A DNA stretch of 47,443 nt from an uncultured Lachnospiraceae bacterium. GTDB lineage: Bacteria; Bacillota; Clostridia; Lachnospirales; Lachnospiraceae. This document shows positions 14,335 through 25,474 of this stretch, piece after piece; the stretch's first letter is position 1, and every line of letters begins with the position of its first letter. The position numbers and the translations under genes are program-made. The stretch covers positions 4,463 to 51,905 of the forward strand of contig CADATP010000015.1 of the NCBI GenBank assembly GCA_902790935.1, given 5' to 3'. The notes under the pieces were generated by a model. The model worked only from the letters and a program-made list of their open reading frames with translations, ran no database searches and had not been told where the DNA came from.

Positions 14335-14419
14335 AAAATGAACCCCCAACCCCGTCCCCGGGGGTCATTCCCCCGGGTCACAAAAATGAACCCCCAACCC
14401 CGTCCCCCTGTGTCATTTT
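14335..14419. repeat. C-rich interspersed repeat, locus A (two units in tandem)
   Basis: Two head-to-tail copies of an element whose core is AACCCCCAACCCCGTCCCC. Unit 2 (14383-14419) is 37 bp and runs from AAAATGAACC to TGTGTCATTTT. Unit 1 (14335-14359) matches its first 25 bp and then diverges into a different G/C-rich stretch. The same 37-bp unit occurs exactly, inverted, at 21559-21643. Clostridial REP-like palindromes mobilised by RAYT-type transposases have similar CCGTCCCCCTGTGTCA ends; no transposase gene is in this window. Confidence 0.8.
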
Positions 14420-17677: not shown

Positions 17678-18694
17678 ATGAAAAGACAATTATTTCGGAA
17701 AATTTCATATATAACAGCAGCGCTTACCGTAGCCGCATCTCTATCCGGATGTGCGGGATCGGCTCCCTCAACCGGTGGAGATATAACGCCGCCGGCTTCG
17801 CAAAGCAAACCCGCCGATTCCCCATCGCAATCCCCTGCACCCGTAGCGGAAACGCCCCCTGCAGAGCCCGTCAAGGGAAGCCGCGACAACTCGATCCGTT
17901 GCCTCGTTCCCATGCAAGACGGTATAAACCTTATAGAAAGCGATGTCGCTTCGATCGATTTTTCCCATTCTGATGACGGATACGTCAGTGTTAAATACTT
18001 CGGTGAAGTTCCCATCATAAAGCTTCGTATTACCGGCCCTGATGAGGTTGTTTACACATACGACCTTAAGACCAATGACTACGAGGTATTTCCTTTGACA
18101 GGCGGAAACGGAGACTATACCATAGCCGTCTACGAAAACATCGAAGGAACCCAGTACGCAGTTGCAATGTCAGAGGTGATAAATGTAACGATAGCCGATG
18201 AGCTTACTCCTTACCTTTATCCAAATCAATATGTTAATTTCTCGGAAAACAGCAAATGCGTTAAACTGGCATCGGACCTTGTTTACAGCAGTAATTCGGA
18301 CCTTGAAGCCGTTCAGGCGGTCTACGATTATATCGTAAACAACATTACTTACGACACGGCAAAGGCCGAAAGTAAACCAACAAATTATGTTCCCGACGTG
18401 GATCACATACTTGATATCAAAACGGGAATCTGCCTCGACTACGCTTCGCTTATGTGCTCGATGCTTAGAAGCCAGGGAATTCCTACAAGGCTTGAGATAG
18501 GATACGCCGCCGATGCTTACCATGCCTGGATAAGCGTTCACATAGACGATGTAGGCTGGGTCAACGGTATAATCGAATTTACCGGAGATACCTGGCAGCT
18601 TATGGATCCAACCTTCGGCGCAAGTACCAACGATGCTGCTTTAAAGAAATTTATAGGTGACGGCACCAATTACACACTTCAGAAAATATATTGA
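17678..18694 (+). CDS. Transglutaminase-like lipoprotein
   Basis: A 338-aa exported lipoprotein. Signal peptide with lipobox LSGC (cleavage before Cys at about residue 25), then a Pro/Ser/Ala-rich linker to about residue 65, then an Ig-like or similar beta region, and a C-terminal transglutaminase-core domain. The catalytic triad is visible: Cys in KTGICLDYASLM (about 251), His in ADAYHAWISV (about 285) and Asp in WQLMDPTFG (about 313). Such domains act as proteases, peptide cyclases or crosslinkers; the substrate is unknown. It opens the plus-strand operon and is only 10 nt ahead of the GspF-like gene, which suggests a role with the pilus-like apparatus, perhaps processing or crosslinking an envelope substrate. 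Confidence 0.88.
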   Translation: MKRQLFRKISYITAALTVAASLSGCAGSAPSTGGDITPPASQSKPADSPSQSPAPVAETPPAEPVKGSRDNSIRCLVPMQDGINLIESDVASIDFSHSDDGYVSVKYFGEVPIIKLRITGPDEVVYTYDLKTNDYEVFPLTGGNGDYTIAVYENIEGTQYAVAMSEVINVTIADELTPYLYPNQYVNFSENSKCVKLASDLVYSSNSDLEAVQAVYDYIVNNITYDTAKAESKPTNYVPDVDHILDIKTGICLDYASLMCSMLRSQGIPTRLEIGYAADAYHAWISVHIDDVGWVNGIIEFTGDTWQLMDPTFGASTNDAALKKFIGDGTNYTLQKIY

Positions 18695-18704
18695 GGAAAT
18701 TAAA

Positions 18705-19751
18705 ATGGCAAATCAAAAGAGTCTTTCAAACGAAGAAATTGCATCATTTTTCAGACAGACCTCCATGCTTTTCTCGGCAGGTATCGGCCCCAGAGACGCG
18801 ATGCAGATCCTGCTCGGAGACAGTAAAAACGAAAAAGGACGCGAGCTTATAACCCAGATACGCGACACCTGCAGAAAGGGTGAGACCTTCTCAACCGCAC
18901 TTTCCGAGACAAAGGTATTTCCTGACTACGTTATCAATATGATCTCCCTCGGTGAGGAATCCGGAAAAACAGATACCTGTATGATCGCTCTTGCGGAGTT
19001 CTATGAAAAAGAGCAGGCAATCTCCGAATCCCTTCGCGGCGCCCTTACATACCCAGTGGTTATGCTGATCATGATGCTTGTTGTAATCATCGTACTTGTA
19101 GGAAAGGTTATGCCTATCTTCCAGCAGGTATTCAACGAGCTCGGTACCGATATGACCGGATTTGCGGGCTCTATGCTTAAAATAGGACAGGCTCTTAACA
19201 ATTACTCCATCGTATTTCTTTGCATCTTCGGAGTACTTGTTCTTTTCTATATAATTTCAAATCATACAGCAGCGGGTCGCAAAATAAGCCACAACTTCCT
19301 CGTACATTTCCCTCTTACCAAGGGCTTCTACGAGAGCGTTGCCTGTGAACGTTTTGCAAGTTCCCTTGCCATTGCAATTTCCAGTGGTATGGATACATAT
19401 TCCGGACTTGATATGGCTAAAAAGATGGTCGAGCACCCTAAGATGTGCGAAAAGATCGATAAATGTAAAAATATGATCAGAGAGGGAAGCAACTTCTCCG
19501 AAGCTCTTTCCAACTCGGATATCTTCTCGAACCTTTATTCACAGATGGTTTCCGTCGGCTTTACCAGCGGTAACCCCGATACGGTTCTTATTCAGATTGC
19601 GGACGCATACGAAAAGCAGTCAACAAAGAAGATTCAGTCCATCCTCTCCGTACTTGAGCCTACGCTTGTTATCATACTTTCACTTATCGTAGGTATGATC
19701 CTGTTGTCGGTAATCCTTCCTCTTATGGGAATCATGTCAAGCATCGGATAA
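18705..19751 (+). CDS. Type II secretion/type IV pilus platform protein (GspF/PilC/ComGB family)
   Basis: The inner-membrane platform protein on which pseudopilus fibres assemble. It has 348 aa with two GspF domains, each a cytoplasmic helical bundle followed by membrane helices: segment 1 at about 10-125 with LISLGEESGK-like signature (VINMISLGEESGKTD), helices at about 128-150 and 170-195, segment 2 at about 205-320 with MVSVGFTSGN, and a final helix, LVIILSLIVGMILLSVIL. The start ATG 18705 has a GAGG site; the frame extends upstream into the lipoprotein gene, but that is not the start. It is a little shorter than most PilC (about 400 aa) and close to ComGB. No partner GspE/PilB ATPase is encoded nearby. 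Confidence 0.93.
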   Translation: MANQKSLSNEEIASFFRQTSMLFSAGIGPRDAMQILLGDSKNEKGRELITQIRDTCRKGETFSTALSETKVFPDYVINMISLGEESGKTDTCMIALAEFYEKEQAISESLRGALTYPVVMLIMMLVVIIVLVGKVMPIFQQVFNELGTDMTGFAGSMLKIGQALNNYSIVFLCIFGVLVLFYIISNHTAAGRKISHNFLVHFPLTKGFYESVACERFASSLAIAISSGMDTYSGLDMAKKMVEHPKMCEKIDKCKNMIREGSNFSEALSNSDIFSNLYSQMVSVGFTSGNPDTVLIQIADAYEKQSTKKIQSILSVLEPTLVIILSLIVGMILLSVILPLMGIMSSIG

Positions 19752-19767
19752 ACAAAAGGGTAAATCA

Positions 19768-20112
19768 ATGAACAGATTTGAACAGGCAACACCTTCGCCA
19801 ATTAAATATGTTTCAAAATATCTGCCGATCGTGTTTTTCGTTGTGATACTGGTGGTGTTCTTTATACTTTTAGGAACGGTATCCGACGATACCTTAGCCC
19901 GCCAGAAGCAAAGCCTTGAGACTGCTCTGGAGCACGATATCGCACAGTGCTACGCCTTAGAGGGCATGTATCCCGCAGATGTTGATTATTTAACCAAACA
20001 TTACGGTCTTACCTATGACCATGATACCTTTGTTGTACAGTACACCTTTTACGGTGAAAACCTTTATCCGGATTACGTTGTGACTTTCAAATCCGGAGTA
20101 TCTTTCTACTAA
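19768..20112 (+). CDS. Small pilin-like membrane protein
   Basis: A 114-aa protein with one transmembrane helix at about 19-38 (LPIVFFVVILVVFFILLG) after an 18-residue cytoplasmic start, then an extracytoplasmic domain. The stretch RQKQSLETALEHDIAQCYALEGMYPADVDYL has the layout of a pilin or GspG stem followed by its glycine-tyrosine-proline loop. No prepilin peptidase site (Gly before Phe, Glu at +5) is visible, so it would stay membrane-anchored. I do not recognise a named family. The position, directly after the platform gene, is where comGC or the major pseudopilin gene sits in comparable operons. Confidence 0.7.
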   Translation: MNRFEQATPSPIKYVSKYLPIVFFVVILVVFFILLGTVSDDTLARQKQSLETALEHDIAQCYALEGMYPADVDYLTKHYGLTYDHDTFVVQYTFYGENLYPDYVVTFKSGVSFY

Positions 20113-20135
20113 AGACCTTCCAGTGAGGAAACGAT

Positions 20136-20639
20136 ATGCAGCAAAAACAGACTCCTCATATTATTGATGTAATATTTGTGCTTGCGCTGTTCGGAGCCTT
20201 CGCCTTTTCAGCCGTAATGCTGATAATAGCGGGTTCTTCCATCTATCGCAACACCATCAACAATATGCAGGCCAATTTTGAAACAAGAACATCCAGTTCC
20301 TATATAAGCGAAAAGATGCGACAGGGCGGAAAGATCGGTACCCTTTCTTCCGATTACGGAGATGTACTTGCAATCTACAAAACAGTCGACAAGCGCGAGT
20401 ACGCGACCTATCTGTACTGCCGTGACGGTTATCTTTGCGAGCTGTACGCCCCTGCCGATCACGACCTTACTCTCGGTCTCCTTGCCGCAGGTCAAAAGAT
20501 AACAGAGCTTGAAACTATTGATGTCGAAGATACCGTTTCCGAAAACGTGATCAAAGTAAACCTTAGTCATAAAGACGGAGCTGTAAACAGACTTTTATTG
20601 CAAAACTACTCGGGAGAATCCCCTAATGAAACATTCTAA
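20136..20639 (+). CDS. DUF4860-type membrane-anchored protein
   Basis: A 167-aa protein with one N-terminal membrane helix (IDVIFVLALFGAFAFSAVMLII, about 10-31) and an extracytoplasmic region of about 130 residues. I recall this opening as DUF4860. The helix followed by SIYRNTINNMQANFETRTSSSYISEKMRQG looks like the helix-and-stem layout of minor pseudopilins of the GspI/J type, but there is no clear peptidase cleavage site. The C-terminal part contains a predicted beta-rich region (YATYLYCRDGYLCELY) with two cysteines. Its 3' end overlaps the next gene by 14 bp, which argues for translational coupling. Confidence 0.75.
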   Translation: MQQKQTPHIIDVIFVLALFGAFAFSAVMLIIAGSSIYRNTINNMQANFETRTSSSYISEKMRQGGKIGTLSSDYGDVLAIYKTVDKREYATYLYCRDGYLCELYAPADHDLTLGLLAAGQKITELETIDVEDTVSENVIKVNLSHKDGAVNRLLLQNYSGESPNETF

Positions 20640-21084
20640 ATCAGGACTTTTCCTTATGGAGATGATAGTGTGCATCCTGTTCTTCTCCCTGAGCGCCGCA
20701 GTAAGCGCCCAGATGTTTGCCAAGTCACACATCATCAGCCAGACCGCTATAAATGAAAACCATGCGGTAATAGAAGTTAATAATGTGGCGGAAGCTTTCT
20801 ACGCGGAAAACGGAAATATAGCCGGGATTTCGGAAATCCTTTATCCCGGACTTTCTCTGACCACCCCCGAAGGCATTATCGTTTACTTTGACGCAGGATT
20901 TAACGCTGTTTCTTTTGACGGGGAAGCTGCGGCTTACTATGTAGAGTTAAAAACGGGCGACCTTAACGATAACCACACAAAAGACGGTACGGTCAGCTTC
21001 TACGATATGTCCGATACATCTAAACCGATCTACAGTCTGGATGTAACTGTCAACGTACCTCGAACCGCTAAAGAAAGCAACTAA
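20626..21084 (+). CDS. Prepilin-like pseudopilin
   Basis: A 152-aa protein with a short basic leader and a type IV prepilin-like N-terminus: KHSKSG then LFLMEMIVCILFFSLSAAVS. Gly-7 would be at -1 and the conserved glutamate at +5, the two residues prepilin peptidase and fibre assembly need. The hydrophobic stretch runs to about residue 28. It is the only member of the block with a convincing cleavage site. The remaining region (AVIEVNNVAEAFYAENG to the end) resembles minor pseudopilin globular domains. It overlaps the preceding gene by 14 bp. A prepilin peptidase must come from elsewhere on the chromosome. Confidence 0.78.
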   Translation: MKHSKSGLFLMEMIVCILFFSLSAAVSAQMFAKSHIISQTAINENHAVIEVNNVAEAFYAENGNIAGISEILYPGLSLTTPEGIIVYFDAGFNAVSFDGEAAAYYVELKTGDLNDNHTKDGTVSFYDMSDTSKPIYSLDVTVNVPRTAKESN

Positions 21085-21095
21085 TTGGAGCAAAT

Positions 21096-21560
21096 ATGGC
21101 TAAACAAAAATCCATTCTTGGAGAACAACCGAAAAATGCCCCCGAATTTAAACTTAATCCGGGGTCCACATCCATCCTTTTGATATTTGTAACGCTCTGC
21201 CTTGTAGCATTTGCGGTACTTTGTGTTGTCAGTTCAAATTCTGACAGAAAGCTTGGCGGCAAAGTTATAAACAGAACAGGCGAATATTACGCTGCCTGCA
21301 ACAGAGCCCAGAGCCTCATTGCCGATATCGACCACGAACTTCTCAGCGCGTATAAGTTTGCTGAAGGAGATGAGGAAGTTTTCTACAACTCCGTCGGCGG
21401 AAACTCGAGATCGTTTGTTATCGACATCAATTCAAAGCAGAAGCTTTATGTAGAGCTGTCCCTGCTGTACCCGAAAGAGGGATCCGACGAACCCTTCTAC
21501 AAGATCACCTCCTGGAAAGTCAGCTCCGGCAGCTCCGGAAACACAATCACCATCGAGTAA
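21096..21560 (+). CDS. Membrane-anchored protein at the end of the pilus-like operon
   Basis: A 154-aa protein with a 22-residue cytoplasmic start and one membrane helix (STSILLIFVTLCLVAFAVLCVV, about 24-45), then about 105 exported residues. The segment NRTGEYYAACNRAQSLIADID following the helix resembles the stem region of PilX/GspK-type proteins. No canonical prepilin cleavage site is seen. The C-terminus is Ser/Gly-rich (SSGSSGN). I do not recognise a family. It is 11 nt downstream of the prepilin-like gene, and its TAA stop is the first base pair set of the palindromic repeat that closes the operon. Confidence 0.7.
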   Translation: MAKQKSILGEQPKNAPEFKLNPGSTSILLIFVTLCLVAFAVLCVVSSNSDRKLGGKVINRTGEYYAACNRAQSLIADIDHELLSAYKFAEGDEEVFYNSVGGNSRSFVIDINSKQKLYVELSLLYPKEGSDEPFYKITSWKVSSGSSGNTITIE

Positions 21561-21643
21561 AATGACACAGGGGGACGGGGTTGGGGGTTCATTTTATAAA
21601 TACTTAGAAAATGAACCCCCAACCCCGTCCCCCTGTGTCATTT
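21559..21643. repeat. Perfect palindromic copy of the interspersed repeat, locus B
   Basis: The 37-bp unit seen at 14383-14419 is present here as an inverted pair: left arm 21559-21595 and right arm 21608-21643 (36 bp), separated by a 12-nt loop. It fills the whole gap between two convergent genes: the left arm begins in the TAA of the plus-strand gene and the right arm ends 1 nt before the minus-strand stop. As RNA it would be a very stable hairpin and probably ends transcription from both sides, although it lacks a clean T-run. Confidence 0.88.
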
Positions 21644-21644
21644 C

Positions 21645-22370
21645 TTATCCAAGGGTTGCGTTTTTAAGTGTCATAAAGGCAAAATCCGCTTCCAGATATA
21701 TGTCAAATGTTCCGATCACTGTAATTTCTTCACCATTTGCCGGGAAATCATTCGGGTAAGTATAAGCATCCGTAGGTACGAATTCTATTCCCTGTGAACA
21801 GCAGGCCAGCGCATCCTCAATAATGCAGGCATGGTATTCATTACCGCTGTTTGAATCATAATAATAGCTGTAAGATCCCCTCATTTTAATGGTCTTTCCG
21901 ATATAGTCGTTCGGTCTCGCCATCATATTATAAACCTCGGCATAGACCATGTCCTTGCCCATAACCGTAAGATCTATATCGATTGCTCCGCTCTCGGTAC
22001 TACCTGCGCTTGCGGTGTCCTCCTCTTTATTTCCCTCTGTTTCTGTCTTATCTTGCGTTTTTTCCACGCTCTGATCTTCTTTTTCCGTACTTATATCCGT
22101 ATCACCGGTACCATCTTCATCATTCATAGGATAATCTCCTGAAGCTAAGATGTCGTCAAGCGAGCCGGTACTTGTTTCGAAAGTTTCGCTACTATCGCTA
22201 TTCTTCTCTTCTGCTTTGGCATCTTCCTTATCCATCTCCGATTGGATAACCTGAGCTATGCTCTGTGTACCGCTGACATTATGCGTTGAAGCCGAACCGT
22301 CCGAGCACCCTGCCAGACAAGCCATTGCTCCCGCTAACACGCATATGCACAATAACTTCTTTTTTGCCAT
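21645..22370 (-). CDS. Lipoprotein of the zinc uptake operon, unknown function
   Basis: A 241-aa exported lipoprotein with a lipobox (ACLAGC, Cys at about residue 22). Residues 23-130 are Ser/Thr/Asp/Glu-rich and probably disordered. The C-terminal domain (about 135-241) has VYNMMARPNDYIGKTIKMRGSY, a double cysteine in ALACCSQGIEF and an ending with ITVIGTF. The double-Cys strand resembles the OB-like domain of the YcgQ/TIGR03943 family that accompanies zinc transporters; this is inference. The start ATG 22370 is 13 nt after the permease stop, so it is the last gene of the zur-znuACB operon and may bind or relay zinc. Confidence 0.75.
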   Translation of the reverse strand: MAKKKLLCICVLAGAMACLAGCSDGSASTHNVSGTQSIAQVIQSEMDKEDAKAEEKNSDSSETFETSTGSLDDILASGDYPMNDEDGTGDTDISTEKEDQSVEKTQDKTETEGNKEEDTASAGSTESGAIDIDLTVMGKDMVYAEVYNMMARPNDYIGKTIKMRGSYSYYYDSNSGNEYHACIIEDALACCSQGIEFVPTDAYTYPNDFPANGEEITVIGTFDIYLEADFAFMTLKNATLG

Positions 22371-22383
22371 TTTCGTCCTCCGG

Positions 22384-23223
22384 TTATCTTCCTCCGGTTA
22401 TCTTTCCTATTACCCAGCAGATTCCGAATACAACCACATCTACAGCTACGATGGTGGAACCGATAGGTGTCTCGGCGAGGATTGAAACTATAAGTCCCAA
22501 AAGAGCGCAGATAACGGATATGATCGCGGAGAAAATAGTAACCTGCTTAAAGTTTCTAAATATCCTCATAGCCGAAAGTGCAGGGAATATTACGAGCGCG
22601 GAAATGAGGAGTGAACCTACAAGGTTCATTGCCAGTACTATTATAACAGCAATTATGATAGCAATCAAAAGGTTATAAGCGTTTGTTTTAACTCCGCTTG
22701 CCTTTGAAAAATCTTCATCGAAGGTCACGGCAAATATCTTATTGTAGAAAAAGATAAATATGGCCACAACCAGCACAGAAAGCACAATGCAAAGGATAAC
22801 TTCCTTCGGCTTAAGAGTAAGTATTGATGTTGCTCCGAAAAGCGTACTGCATACATCTCCCGAAAGGTTTGAGGAGGTGGAAAATACGTTCATGATAAGA
22901 TAGCCGAAAGCAAGCGCTCCGACACTTATCATCGCGATAGCGGCATCACCCTTTATCTTCGCATTATTGCCTTTTCTAAGGAGCAGTACAGCACTTAAAA
23001 CCGTTACAGGAAGTATAAGCAGCATATTATTCGTCAGCTTAAGGACCGTAGCCACTGCCATAGCTCCGAAAGCTACATGCGAAAGACCGTCTCCGATATA
23101 AGAAAAGCGCTTAAGCACAAGTGTTACGCCAAGAAGGGATGAGCAAAGAGCGATAAGTACCGCTACGATAATGGCATATCTTACGAAGGGGTACTGAAGA
23201 TACATAATAAGCTTATCAATCAT
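22384..23223 (-). CDS. znuB: Zinc ABC transporter permease
   Basis: Integral membrane subunit of a cluster 9 (ABC-3) metal importer. The protein has 279 aa with seven to nine hydrophobic segments and the family pattern LKRFSYIGDGLSHVAFGAMAVA (about 38-59) and GSLLISALVIFPALSA (about 205-220). I place the start at ATG 23223 (MIDKLIMYL), with GGAGG 9 nt upstream; the longer open frame runs into znuC and has no ribosome site. It is 4 nt downstream of znuC and followed by the lipoprotein gene. Zinc is inferred as the substrate from the operon; manganese transporters belong to the same family. Confidence 0.92.
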   Translation of the reverse strand: MIDKLIMYLQYPFVRYAIIVAVLIALCSSLLGVTLVLKRFSYIGDGLSHVAFGAMAVATVLKLTNNMLLILPVTVLSAVLLLRKGNNAKIKGDAAIAMISVGALAFGYLIMNVFSTSSNLSGDVCSTLFGATSILTLKPKEVILCIVLSVLVVAIFIFFYNKIFAVTFDEDFSKASGVKTNAYNLLIAIIIAVIIVLAMNLVGSLLISALVIFPALSAMRIFRNFKQVTIFSAIISVICALLGLIVSILAETPIGSTIVAVDVVVFGICWVIGKITGGR

Positions 23224-23227
23224 CTTT

Positions 23228-23926
23228 TTATACCTCCTCTCCCAAGAAATTACGGCCAAGACTGCTTTCAAGGTAGTCCTTTTTTGTGCCGAAATAAATC
23301 GTCTCTCCGATGTGGAGAATATGGCTTGCATACTTTAAGGCTGCGGAAATATCGTGCGAGATCATAATAATACTGATTCCCTCTTTATTAAGACTCTCGA
23401 TCAGCGCATACATCTCCGCCGTCACCTTAGGGTCGAGTCCCGCTACAGGCTCGTCAAGAAGAAGGAGCTTTCCCGTCGCGCAAAGGGCCCTCGCCAAAAG
23501 GACGCGCTGCTGCTGACCGCCTGAGAGCTCTCTGTAGCATCTGTCTTTAAGATGAGTGATCCCCATCTTTTCCATATTATCTTCCGCGAGCTTTTTCTCC
23601 GCCTTGTTATAAAAAGGTCTGAGACCGGTCTTTGCCTGGCATCCCGATAAAACAATCTCTCTTACCGCTGCGGGAAAATCTCTCTGTACAAGGGTTTGCT
23701 GAGGCAGATAGCCTATATCCTTTTTCGTAAGTCCGTCTCCGAATGTGATAGTTCCGCCATATGGCTTTTGAAGTCCAAGGAGCGTCTTCATCAAAGTCGT
23801 TTTACCGGAACCGTTTTCGCCAACAATACACAAATAATCGCCCTTATTTATTTCAAATGATAAATCCGTTAATATAGCCTGATTATCGTATCCCAGCGAC
23901 AGACTATCTGCTTTCAGCAGTGCCAT
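23228..23926 (-). CDS. znuC: Zinc ABC transporter ATP-binding protein
   Basis: ATPase subunit that powers the importer. The length is 232 aa. Walker A is GENGSGKTTLM (about 37-47), the Q-loop lies in YLPQQTLVQRDF, the ABC signature is LSGGQQQR (about 139-146), Walker B is LLLLDEP (about 158-164) and the switch histidine is in MISHD (about 195). All key residues are intact. It lies 15 nt downstream of znuA and 4 nt upstream of znuB, within one transcript. Confidence 0.95.
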   Translation of the reverse strand: MALLKADSLSLGYDNQAILTDLSFEINKGDYLCIVGENGSGKTTLMKTLLGLQKPYGGTITFGDGLTKKDIGYLPQQTLVQRDFPAAVREIVLSGCQAKTGLRPFYNKAEKKLAEDNMEKMGITHLKDRCYRELSGGQQQRVLLARALCATGKLLLLDEPVAGLDPKVTAEMYALIESLNKEGISIIMISHDISAALKYASHILHIGETIYFGTKKDYLESSLGRNFLGEEV

Positions 23927-23941
23927 TTTAAAATCCTCCGA

Positions 23942-24997
23942 TTAATTGAGAGCTTTCTTTAAAACCTCAAGATTGCTCAACATTATTCCGAGATAAGTCG
24001 CACCTTCCTTCACATCCTTAGATGTGGTTGACTGCATAGAGTCAAGCGTAAGTACGTCCATATCCTTACCATTTGTGTTACTGATAATTGTATCTGCTAT
24101 TTCCCGGTTTGTTCCGTCAATCTTCATTACATACTTTAAGCCAAGCTCATCGACCTTATTTGCAAGGAACACGATGGTCTCAAAGCTTGCTTCGGTCTCA
24201 GCCGAGCATCCTACAAATGCAGCATAATAATCGAGTCCGTAGTCGTCCACAAGGTATCTGAAAGGGAATCTGTCGCCGAACAAAAGCGTCTTGCTTCCGG
24301 CAGACGATGCAACCTCCTCATACTGCTTATCAAGTTTATCCAGCTCAGCCTTGTAAGAATCAAGGTTAGCTCTGTAAGCCTCTGCGTTAGCAGCATCGAT
24401 CTTTTCAAGACCGGCCTCGATAGCGTCACAGATCACAGCGGTATTCTTAAGAGAAAGCCAAACATGCTCGTCAAACTCTATCTCTCCCTCTTCATGCTCA
24501 TGGTCGTGCTCTTCGCCCTCATCATGATCGTGATCCTCGTGGTCATGATCTTCACCTTCCTCATGGTCATGTTCCTCGTGATCATGGTCATGCTCCATAC
24601 CCTCCTTGACTTCCTCGGCCTTTACACTCTCTCCTAAGGTCTCGAGAAGATTTATAACAACCATATCTTTATTCTTTGCTTCCGAGAGAGCATCCTCTAC
24701 CCACTCATCGGATTCGCCGCCTACATATATAAACATATCGCAGTCGGATATCTTAGCGATGTCAACCGCAGTAGGCTGATAGCTGTGAAGGTCCACCCCA
24801 TTGTCAAGAAGCATAGTAACATCGATATTGTCGATATCCCGGGCGATATTCTTTACCCAGTCATACTCAGGGAAAATAGTTGTAACAACGCTTATCTTAC
24901 CGGAAGCATCTCCGGCTGTTTGCGTATTTGTTCCACATGCCGCAAGGCAGGTTACTGCATAAAAAGCTATCAATATAGCTGAAATAATTTTTTTCAT
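23942..24997 (-). CDS. znuA: Zinc ABC transporter substrate-binding lipoprotein with His-rich loop
   Basis: Captures zinc outside the membrane and delivers it to ZnuBC. The 351-aa protein has a lipoprotein signal peptide (lipobox LAAC, Cys about 21). Metal ligands of the cluster A-I fold are visible: His in NGVDLHSYQP (about 70), His in FDEHVW (about 177) and the Glu/His-bearing region further on. Between the first two is a loop with 12 histidines alternating with Asp/Glu (about 135-168), typical of zinc-specific members where it helps recruit the metal. The C-terminal half keeps LFGDRFPFRYL, common in this family. It is 39 nt downstream of zur. Confidence 0.95.
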   Translation of the reverse strand: MKKIISAILIAFYAVTCLAACGTNTQTAGDASGKISVVTTIFPEYDWVKNIARDIDNIDVTMLLDNGVDLHSYQPTAVDIAKISDCDMFIYVGGESDEWVEDALSEAKNKDMVVINLLETLGESVKAEEVKEGMEHDHDHEEHDHEEGEDHDHEDHDHDEGEEHDHEHEEGEIEFDEHVWLSLKNTAVICDAIEAGLEKIDAANAEAYRANLDSYKAELDKLDKQYEEVASSAGSKTLLFGDRFPFRYLVDDYGLDYYAAFVGCSAETEASFETIVFLANKVDELGLKYVMKIDGTNREIADTIISNTNGKDMDVLTLDSMQSTTSKDVKEGATYLGIMLSNLEVLKKALN

Positions 24998-25036
24998 AAT
25001 TGCTCCTTAATGATCATATTGCTATCCCGGCAATGT

Positions 25037-25474
25037 CTATTCTGTTTTTTTCGTTTCTTCTTCTTGACATTTCTCGCATATTCCGTATAAAACCGTTCTC
25101 GAAGGGTCGATCTTAAAGTTGTGACGTCCCAAAAGGTGATTTTCAAGCTCCTGCATCTCGTTGCATTTAAGATGGATAAGCCTTCCGCAGTTCTCACACT
25201 TTAAATGGATGCAGGAAACTTTTTCCTCTTCGGATTCATCCCCTATATACTCGTAGCAAGCTGAGCTGTTGACATCAACTATATACTTGTTGACAAGCCC
25301 CTCCTCCACAAGTTTATCCATCTGCCTGTAAATAGTCGACTGACCCACAGAAAGCCCCATATCGCGGATATGGTCATTCATATCGGCGATGGTAACATGC
25401 CCGTCTTTTTTAGACTTTAAGAAGTCTAAAATAATCTCTTGCTGTTTGGTTTTATATTTTGGTCTAATTCCCAT
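25037..25474 (-). CDS. zur: Fur family zinc-responsive repressor
   Basis: A 145-aa metal-dependent repressor. The N-terminal winged helix (about 5-80) includes ADMNDHIRDMGLSVGQSTIYRQMDKL. The C-terminal dimer domain contains HLKCENCGRLIHLKC and YGICEKC, i.e. two Cys-x-x-Cys pairs forming the structural zinc site. Fur, Zur and PerR cannot be separated on motif alone; the zinc transporter genes in the same operon make Zur the best call. A paired dyad operator lies directly upstream, so it very probably represses its own operon. The ribosome site is weak (GAAGGATAG) before ATG 25474. Confidence 0.88.
   Translation of the reverse strand: MGIRPKYKTKQQEIILDFLKSKKDGHVTIADMNDHIRDMGLSVGQSTIYRQMDKLVEEGLVNKYIVDVNSSACYEYIGDESEEEKVSCIHLKCENCGRLIHLKCNEMQELENHLLGRHNFKIDPSRTVLYGICEKCQEEETKKTE

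What the first reader, a model, noticed from the sequence alone, without database searches (positions are those of the whole stretch)
17678..21560. Orphan pilus-like operon with a transglutaminase lipoprotein and no ATPase
Six tightly spaced plus-strand genes encode a lipoprotein with an intact Cys-His-Asp transglutaminase triad, a GspF/PilC/ComGB platform and four small single-helix proteins. Only one (20626-21084) has a prepilin cleavage site (Gly at -1, Glu at +5). The other three keep a pilin-like helix-and-stem layout but no cleavage site. Known type II, type IV and Com systems encode GspE/PilB/ComGA next to the platform; here it is missing, as is the prepilin peptidase. The set could be a fixed, non-extending pseudopilus-like complex that presents or is crosslinked by the transglutaminase, or a degenerate Com locus.
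Basis: partly seen in the sequence, partly recalled or inferred. Interest (0 to 1): 0.72.

Follow-up and report, generated by a model that had tools for sequence, protein, structure and literature searches.

The report
Pilus-like operon paired with PilT motor
Some gut and rumen bacteria of the family Lachnospiraceae and relatives carry a conserved set of genes that resembles a type IV pilus machine; many of the genomes sampled lack the usual assembly motor and signal peptidase but have a pulling-type motor, so it may run a short envelope device rather than build a normal pilus.

Summary
The six genes at 17678-21560 are real and conserved. The order transglutaminase lipoprotein, PilC-type platform, ORF3, DUF4860, ORF5, ORF6 holds in 74 of 80 named loci; the other six are cut by contig ends. 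"No ATPase" is true of the operon, not of the genome: the assembly has PilB and PilT elsewhere, and a sister genome has a separate type IV pilus cluster with PilB, PilC, prepilin, PilD and PilM. In a family sample a PilT-family ATPase directly follows ORF6 in 44 of 52 loci; these PilTs form their own clade, apparently lost in the window's lineage. The unexpected part: of 52 carrier genomes 27 show no PilB-class ATPase and no PilD-type N-domain, yet all 52 have PilT. ORF5 keeps Glu5 in 146 of 146 but Gly(-1) in 34; ORF6 keeps Gly(-1) in 141 of 142 without Glu5; ORF3 and DUF4860 almost never show a cleavage motif. Best reading: a type IV filament-derived, PilT-driven envelope machine with mostly uncleaved pseudopilins and a transglutaminase with an invariant Cys-His-Asp triad.

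The parts
17678..18694 (+). Transglutaminase-like lipoprotein (lipobox LSGC; low-complexity linker; Transglut_core with Cys252, His282, Asp310)
   Evidence: Pfam PF01841 2.1e-22; triad invariant in 136 of 136; lipobox-like motif by a loose pattern in 105 of 136
18705..19751 (+). PilC/GspF-type platform protein (348 aa, shorter at the N-terminus than the 404-aa canonical PilC of the sister genome)
   Evidence: PF00482 3.7e-50; GspF 228.9 bits, ComGB 134.6 bits, both below their curated cut-offs; PilC chain 3jc8_Ca 4.5e-79; in-operon PilC is one side of a branch, 63 rows, SH-aLRT 99
19768..20112 (+). ORF3: short single-helix protein without prepilin site; Tyr62, Gly66, Pro69 invariant
   Evidence: Invariant in 145 of 145; G-x4-E pattern in 1 of 145; no meaningful Pfam or PDB relative
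20136..20639 (+). ORF4: DUF4860 pseudopilin-like protein without Gly-type cleavage site; acidic residue at the position aligned to pilin position 5
   Evidence: PF16152 1.1e-16; Asp in 120 and Glu in 11 of 146 at that column; relative L026 has N_methyl and DUF4860 in one protein; G-x4-E in 2 of 146
20626..21084 (+). ORF5: prepilin-like protein, G|LFLMEM, Glu at +5
   Evidence: Glu5 in 146 of 146, Gly(-1) in 34 of 146; profile hits PDB pilins, best 3.3e-4. An Na+/H+ antiporter subunit G hit (NCBIfam, 7.1e-4, 19.4 bits against a cut-off of 122) is judged spurious
21096..21560 (+). ORF6: single-helix protein, Gly(-1) kept, no Glu5 (GspK/PilX-like cap candidate, by layout)
   Evidence: Gly in 141 of 142, hydrophobic +5 in 142 of 142
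21558..21645 (.). Near-perfect palindrome after the operon, between convergent genes; possible bidirectional terminator or REP-like repeat
   Evidence: -73.4 kcal/mol, z -13.8; related copy at 14335-14413. The terminator scan did not list it

Best explanation
The operon encodes a machine derived from type IV filaments that works with a PilT-family ATPase and does not need PilB or PilD. SHOWN by sequence: conserved gene order; a dedicated in-operon PilT clade in the family, absent from the operon here; PilT in every carrier of the 150-genome sample; no PilB-class and no PilD-type hit in over half of those carriers; invariant transglutaminase triad; Glu5 kept without Gly(-1) in most ORF5 proteins; Gly(-1) without Glu5 in ORF6. 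INFERRED: PilT (in the window's genome most likely the PilT on contig C1 beside comM- and dprA-like genes) turns the PilC platform; the platform moves or remodels a short, mostly uncleaved, membrane-held stub of ORF3, DUF4860, ORF5 and ORF6, with ORF6 as the cap lacking Glu5; the transglutaminase lipoprotein on the outer membrane face modifies (crosslinks or cleaves) the stub or a neighbouring surface protein. A long extending pilus is not expected.
For: Order: 74 of 80 named loci, the other six cut by contig ends; in 52 loci of the family sample PilC to ORF6 in 51, ORF6-PilT in 44, transglutaminase directly before PilC in 43. PilT in 52 of 52 carriers; among PilB-less genomes 27 of 27 carriers against 4 of 52 non-carriers, Fisher 3e-17. 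PilD N-domain in 0 of 27 PilB-less and 20 of 25 PilB-bearing carriers. G052 (listed as 100% complete) has one platform protein, one T2SSE hit above cut-off (the in-operon PilT) and no A24 hit. In-operon PilT: one side of a branch, 49 rows, SH-aLRT 100 (quick tree); P-loop and GEMRD in all 49, three with a variant P-loop letter. Motif counts. dN/dS 0.02-0.13 in 11 of 18 pairs.
Against: No structure or experiment; pilin folds untested. The -1 residue of ORF5 is small (Ser, Gly or Ala) in 118 of 146, which a relaxed peptidase could use; ORF6 Gly(-1) is near invariant. Short A24 proteins of the Tad type exist in several carriers and A24 was not searched in the 150-genome set. The window's genus also has a full T4P, so cross-use of PilB and PilD is possible there. 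That PilT drives this platform rests on co-occurrence and adjacency. PilB was called at best E <= 1e-100 and PilT at E <= 1e-60. The operon is patchy (9 of 31 genomes of the genus; 52 of 150 in the family), so it is dispensable.
Confidence: 0.5

Rival explanations
1. A short DNA-uptake pseudopilus (Com-like in function, not in descent): tip proteins bind DNA, PilT pulls, and the transglutaminase-fold enzyme acts on the wall or the stub.
For: In the window's genome the PilT gene lies beside Mg-chelatase-like (comM-type) and DprA genes (Pfam; the name comM is recalled). Of the four PilB-less carriers with no PilT at the operon, three (G074, G078, G082) have PilT near similar genes, recognised by eye; G111 does not. 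The order platform, four small genes, cap resembles comGB-GG (names in PMC10191384, passages).
Against: Com machines use ComGA and a peptidase. No role of a transglutaminase in uptake is known to me. In 44 of 52 loci PilT is at the operon, not at dprA.
Confidence: 0.2
2. A normal but short pilus: PilT works in both directions and the subunits are cleaved by a Tad-type or unknown peptidase that accepts Ser or Ala at -1.
For: Small residue at -1 in ORF5 in 118 of 146 and Gly(-1) in ORF6 in 141 of 142. CpaF is reported to drive extension and retraction (PMC11300603, start of abstract in the listing). A peptidase shared between systems is suggested for MSH loci (PMC6668835, passages).
Against: ORF3 and DUF4860 show a G-x4-E motif in only 3 of 291. 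G052 has no A24 hit yet keeps the Gly in ORF6. Gly(-1) in ORF5 does not follow PilD presence (3 of 20 with, 5 of 31 without).
Confidence: 0.15
3. An accessory set of minor pilins, second platform and surface enzyme serving the canonical T4P of the same cell.
For: 25 of 52 carriers have PilB; sister G013 has a canonical cluster.
Against: 27 of 52 carriers show no PilB; PilB is as frequent in carriers (25 of 52) as in non-carriers (46 of 98), Fisher p = 1.0; separate platform and PilT clades.
Confidence: 0.1
4. A decaying remnant of a T4P or Com locus.
For: Cleavage motifs partly lost; PilT lost from the operon here; patchy distribution.
Against: Low dN/dS where computable, invariant catalytic triad and Glu5, same order across many genera.
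Confidence: 0.04

Closest known systems
Type IVa pilus (T4aP)
   Same: Platform of GspF/PilC type, prepilin-like proteins, PilT-family ATPase
   Different: No PilB-class and no PilD-type hit in 27 of 52 carriers; no PilM hit in relatives G033, G042, G052; no clear major pilin; transglutaminase attached
Competence (Com) pilus, comG operon
   Same: Platform followed by small single-helix genes, the last without Glu5; monoderm host
   Different: No ComGA in the operon; platform scores higher as GspF than as ComGB; PilT instead; no PilD/ComC-type N-domain in the 27 PilB-less carriers
T2SS pseudopilus tip (GspI/J/K)
   Same: ORF6 lacks Glu5 like the capping subunit; DUF4860 and ORF5 are J/I-like candidates by layout only
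   Different: No GspE in the operon; no secretin or GspL/M gene seen near it (by eye); Gly-type cleavage sites mostly missing
Tad (T4cP)
   Same: Occurs in the same genome
   Different: Separate locus on C5 with its own ATPase, platform pair and A24 protein
MSH pilus
   Same: Locus without its own prepilin peptidase
   Different: MSH genomes were reported to have a peptidase in another system (PMC6668835, passages); G052 here has no A24 hit

Membership tests
Type IV filament machinery (four core proteins; PMC10191384, passages) | Platform protein | tested here: met
   PF00482 3.7e-50; PDB PilC 4.5e-79
Type IV filament machinery | Extension ATPase (PilB class) | tested here: not met
   Present in this genome and in 25 of 52 carriers, no hit in 27 of 52, so not a constant part
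Type IV filament machinery | Prepilin peptidase | tested here: not met
   PilD N-domain in 0 of 27 PilB-less carriers; no A24 hit in G052. Tad-type A24 proteins were not searched in the 150 set
Type IV filament machinery | Pilins with class III signal peptide | tested here: inconclusive
   ORF5 Glu5 146/146, Gly(-1) 34/146; ORF6 Gly without Glu5; ORF3 1/145; DUF4860 2/146
T4aP | PilM/PilN/PilO | tested here: not met
   Not in the operon. PilM_2 profile: no hit in G033, G042, G052; in G041 one partial hit below cut-off, in G055 hits in a 709-aa frame. PilN and PilO not searched
Com pilus | ComGA-ComGB operon | tested here: not met
   No PilB-class gene in the 80 plus 52 loci; platform prefers GspF over ComGB
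PilT family (TIGR01420), gene after ORF6 in relatives | Score above curated cut-off 319.1 bits; P-loop | tested here: met
   Family-sample genes at the operon score 389.9 to 429.1 bits; P-loop in all 49 rows. Those of G035, G041, G052, G056 were not scored with TIGR01420
DUF4860 (PF16152) | Score above cut-off 25 bits | tested here: met
   61 bits
Transglutaminase-like superfamily | Cys-His-Asp triad | tested here: met
   136 of 136; transfer or cleavage activity not testable here
Pilin fold | Extended N-terminal helix packed on a beta sheet | not testable with these tools
   Structure prediction switched off

The most novel reading that the evidence does not exclude
A filament-less relative of the type IV pilus: mostly uncleaved, membrane-held pseudopilins, one with an invariant Glu5, worked by a PilC platform and a dedicated PilT ATPase alone, with no extension ATPase and no prepilin peptidase, coupled to an extracytoplasmic transglutaminase-fold enzyme. 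It would be a type IV filament-derived machine missing two of the four parts thought universal.
Probability: 0.4. Interest if true: 0.85.

Novelty: new variant of a known kind. Interest (0 to 1): 0.64.

Why it matters
[quoted passage not shown] A recurring locus that keeps platform, pilin-like proteins and PilT but can do without the other two would test what Glu5, the platform and PilT can do without cleavage and without PilB. It is found in many Lachnospiraceae genomes from gut and rumen (titles), and the term DUF4860 occurs in no paper of the searched library.

Tried and rejected
Rejected: ATPase-free system (PilT in 52 of 52 carriers); degenerate locus; Com by descent. Considered: predicting cleavage from PilD presence. 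Gly(-1) of ORF5 does not follow PilD (3 of 20 with, 5 of 31 without), so neither cleavage nor its absence is proven.

Led nowhere: profile searches of PDB with ORF3, DUF4860 and ORF6 gave only rows judged chance; Pfam and NCBIfam gave nothing credible for ORF3 and ORF6. Promoter-like sites were no more than in shuffles and the terminator scan missed the palindrome.

Literature (PMC library only): DUF4860, 0 papers; transglutaminase + type IV pilus + Clostridia + PilT, 0; "lack PilB" + PilT + type IV, 0; type IV pili + Lachnospiraceae + PilC + pilin, 1; type IV pilus + Lachnospiraceae + PilT, 2; Butyrivibrio + type IV pili + transglutaminase, 2; pilT + dprA + comM + Clostridia + competence, 2; GspK/GspI/GspJ query, 7; type IV filament + Firmicutes + PilT + prepilin peptidase, 13. 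Of all these, only passages of PMC6668835, PMC10191384 and PMC6916266 were seen; the others as listings with starts of abstracts. Absence from print is claimed only for these searches.

Limits of counts: the 150-genome set was drawn by the tool from the family (149 at least 95% complete, plus G000 at 82.7%). Presence calls for DUF4860, PilB, PilT and PilD were copied by hand into and agree with the tallies for DUF4860, PilT and PilD. PF16152 may miss divergent members: G162, counted as non-carrier, has a PilT hit of 397.6 bits, in the range of the operon type. The 80 named loci are the best 80 of at least 476 and lean towards the window's lineage. Columns rest on MAFFT, some ORF5 starts are too long, and the rows include duplicate genomes. 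dS is near saturation and 7 of 18 pairs were not computable. Tree: only 4 PilT rows beside PilB, which do not form one group; the PilTs of L260 (G078) and L264 (G124, second copy) were not captured by my filter and are not in it.
Full report
What is there. The window carries six plus-strand genes at 17678-21560: a transglutaminase-like lipoprotein (PF01841, 2.1e-22), a PilC/GspF platform (PF00482, 3.7e-50), ORF3, a DUF4860 protein (PF16152, 1.1e-16), ORF5 with a prepilin-like N-terminus, and ORF6. Gaps are 10 to 23 nt, and DUF4860 overlaps ORF5. A near-perfect palindrome (-73.4 kcal/mol, z -13.8) lies between the operon and a convergent gene. One detail was missed: ORF6 has a Gly directly before its helix (PG|STSIL) but no Glu5.

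Is the ATPase missing? From the operon, yes. From the genome, no. A PF00437 search of the assembly (2.28 Mb, 94 contigs, 82.7% complete) found a PilB on contig C28 (562 aa), a PilT on C1 (351 aa) and a third ATPase in the Tad locus on C5. PilB has MshEN plus T2SSE. C28 ends about 0.4 kb after pilB. In the sister species G013, whose six proteins are 94 to 100% identical, the matching contig continues into PilC (404 aa), an N_methyl prepilin, PilD (A24_N plus A24) and PilM. So the genus has a canonical T4P as well as this operon.

The operon in relatives. A scan of genome contigs with the platform alignment gave at least 476 relatives, of which the best 80 were kept. Profiles built from alignments A1-A6 found transglutaminase to ORF6 in order in 74 of 80; the other six are cut by contig ends. 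No PilT or PilB was found in any of the 80 loci, 66 of which have ORF6 and more than 1.3 kb after it. A family-wide sample looks different. Of 150 genomes, 52 carry DUF4860. In 52 loci from 51 of these genomes (G000 not included; G166 has two) the order PilC to ORF6 holds in 51, the transglutaminase lies directly before PilC in 43, and a PilT-family ATPase directly follows ORF6 in 44. Relatives from other families agree in part: G035, G041 and G052 have PilT after ORF6, and in G056 a PilT follows what looks like an ORF6 fragment at a contig start (by eye). G042 and G055 have PilT before PilC. In G047 a DUF4860 protein with a canonical site lies in a full T4P cluster with PilB, the one case seen of PilB in the same cluster.

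The operon is patchy: 9 of 31 genomes of the genus and 52 of 150 of the family sample. Four genomes without DUF4860 have two PilB-class genes each.

The motor. PilT proteins encoded at the operon form one side of a branch, 49 rows with SH-aLRT 100, apart from the 18 other PilT rows (quick tree). All 49 have a P-loop and GEMRD; three have a variant P-loop letter. The window's PilT falls with unlinked PilTs and with the PilT beside PilB of G034. The operon's own PilT was thus probably lost in the window's lineage. The unlinked PilT lies beside an HD-domain gene, a Mg-chelatase-like (comM-type) gene and dprA. Of the four PilB-less carriers with no PilT in the fetched operon locus, G074, G078 and G082 have PilT near comM- and dprA-like genes and G111 does not (by eye). 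G078's PilT and a second PilT of G124 were not captured for the tree.

Co-occurrence. PilB-class hits (best PF00437 E <= 1e-100) occur in 25 of 52 carriers and 46 of 98 non-carriers. PilT (TIGR01420, E <= 1e-60) occurs in 52 of 52 carriers. Among PilB-less genomes it occurs in 27 of 27 carriers and 4 of 52 non-carriers (Fisher 3e-17). The PilD N-domain (PF06750) occurs in 0 of 27 PilB-less carriers and 20 of 25 PilB-bearing carriers. A24 itself was not searched in this set, so Tad-type peptidases may be present. G052 (listed as 100% complete, another family) has one platform protein, the PilT at the operon as its only T2SSE hit above cut-off, and no A24 hit. The platform is likewise separate: 63 in-operon rows are one side of a branch against 12 canonical rows plus L045 and L046, SH-aLRT 99 (quick tree).

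Cleavage motifs. On 142 to 146 sequences per gene: ORF5 has Glu5 in 146 of 146 but Gly(-1) in only 34 (Ser 68, Ala 16, other 28). ORF6 has Gly(-1) in 141 of 142 and a hydrophobic +5 in all. ORF3 shows a G-x4-E pattern in 1 of 145 and DUF4860 in 2 of 146; DUF4860 keeps an acidic residue (Asp 120, Glu 11 of 146) at the column I aligned to pilin position 5. Gly(-1) in ORF5 is not commoner where PilD is present (3 of 20 against 5 of 31). G052 keeps the Gly in ORF6 without any A24 hit, so that Gly may be structural. In canonical filaments Glu5 pairs with the N-terminal amine of the neighbouring subunit (PMC10191384, passages). An invariant Glu5 without a conserved site is therefore odd, and is the sharpest hint that assembly here works differently. 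Against this, the -1 residue of ORF5 is small in 118 of 146, which a relaxed peptidase might accept.

Selection. Within the genus pN is 0.04 to 0.31 and pS 0.58 to 0.84; dN/dS, computable in 11 of 18 pairs, is 0.02 to 0.13 with dS near saturation. The transglutaminase Cys, His and Asp are invariant in 136 of 136; a loose lipobox pattern is present in 105 of 136.

Mechanism. Shown: the parts and their co-inheritance. Inferred: PilT turns PilC, and the platform works on a short, mostly uncleaved stub of ORF3 to ORF6 capped by ORF6; the transglutaminase acts outside on the stub or on surface proteins. A role in DNA uptake is the strongest functional rival because of the comM-dprA position of PilT in the window's lineage; comEA and comEC were not searched. 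Use of a Tad-type peptidase is not excluded in most carriers.

Compared with the known. A 2019 survey set pilT and pilD as mandatory in its first T4aP search model and reports MSH loci without a peptidase gene in genomes that have one in another system (PMC6668835, passages). A 2023 review names pilins, peptidase, extension ATPase and platform as present in every system and describes a tip complex capped by a subunit lacking Glu5 (PMC10191384, passages). A 2019 review of monoderm T4P does not contain the string Lachnospir (PMC6916266, passages). The operon meets the platform feature, partly the pilin feature, and fails constancy of extension ATPase and PilD-type peptidase. I therefore file it as a new variant derived from type IV filaments, not as a T4P, Com or T2SS member. 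The I/J/K equivalence of these ORFs is by layout, not tested.

Verdict. Observation partly confirmed; interpretation partly supported; interest 0.64. The value lies less in a missing ATPase than in a recurring gene set that is tied to PilT and not to PilB or PilD.

Noticed in passing
14335-14413 and 21565-21638: Inverted repeats built of a 31-bp unit occur in two intergenic places: four matches with up to 3 mismatches, chance expectation 0. REP-like or shared terminator element.
   Followed up: partly
22384-25474: Minus-strand set that looks like a zinc or manganese ABC uptake operon: permease, ATPase, His-rich binding protein and a Fur-type regulator (read by eye).
   Followed up: no
L027:3895-13502 and L108:191-8167: In this genome and sister G013 two large BspA-like surface proteins (by eye) lie directly before pilB; in L027 a sortase gene (Pfam) precedes them.
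   Followed up: no
L032:7250-7933: A sortase-like gene (by eye) sits inside the operon between transglutaminase and PilC in G035.
   Followed up: no
L031:10521-11147 and L034:4240-4854: An ECF sigma-factor-like gene (by eye) precedes the operon in two relatives, hinting at regulated expression.
   Followed up: no
G011, G027, G007, G034: Four genomes without DUF4860 each have two PilB-class genes, so a second T4P-like cluster may replace the operon there.
   Followed up: no
L108:10568-14683: In sister G013 about 5 kb of other genes, one HipA-like by eye, separate pilB from pilC.
   Followed up: no
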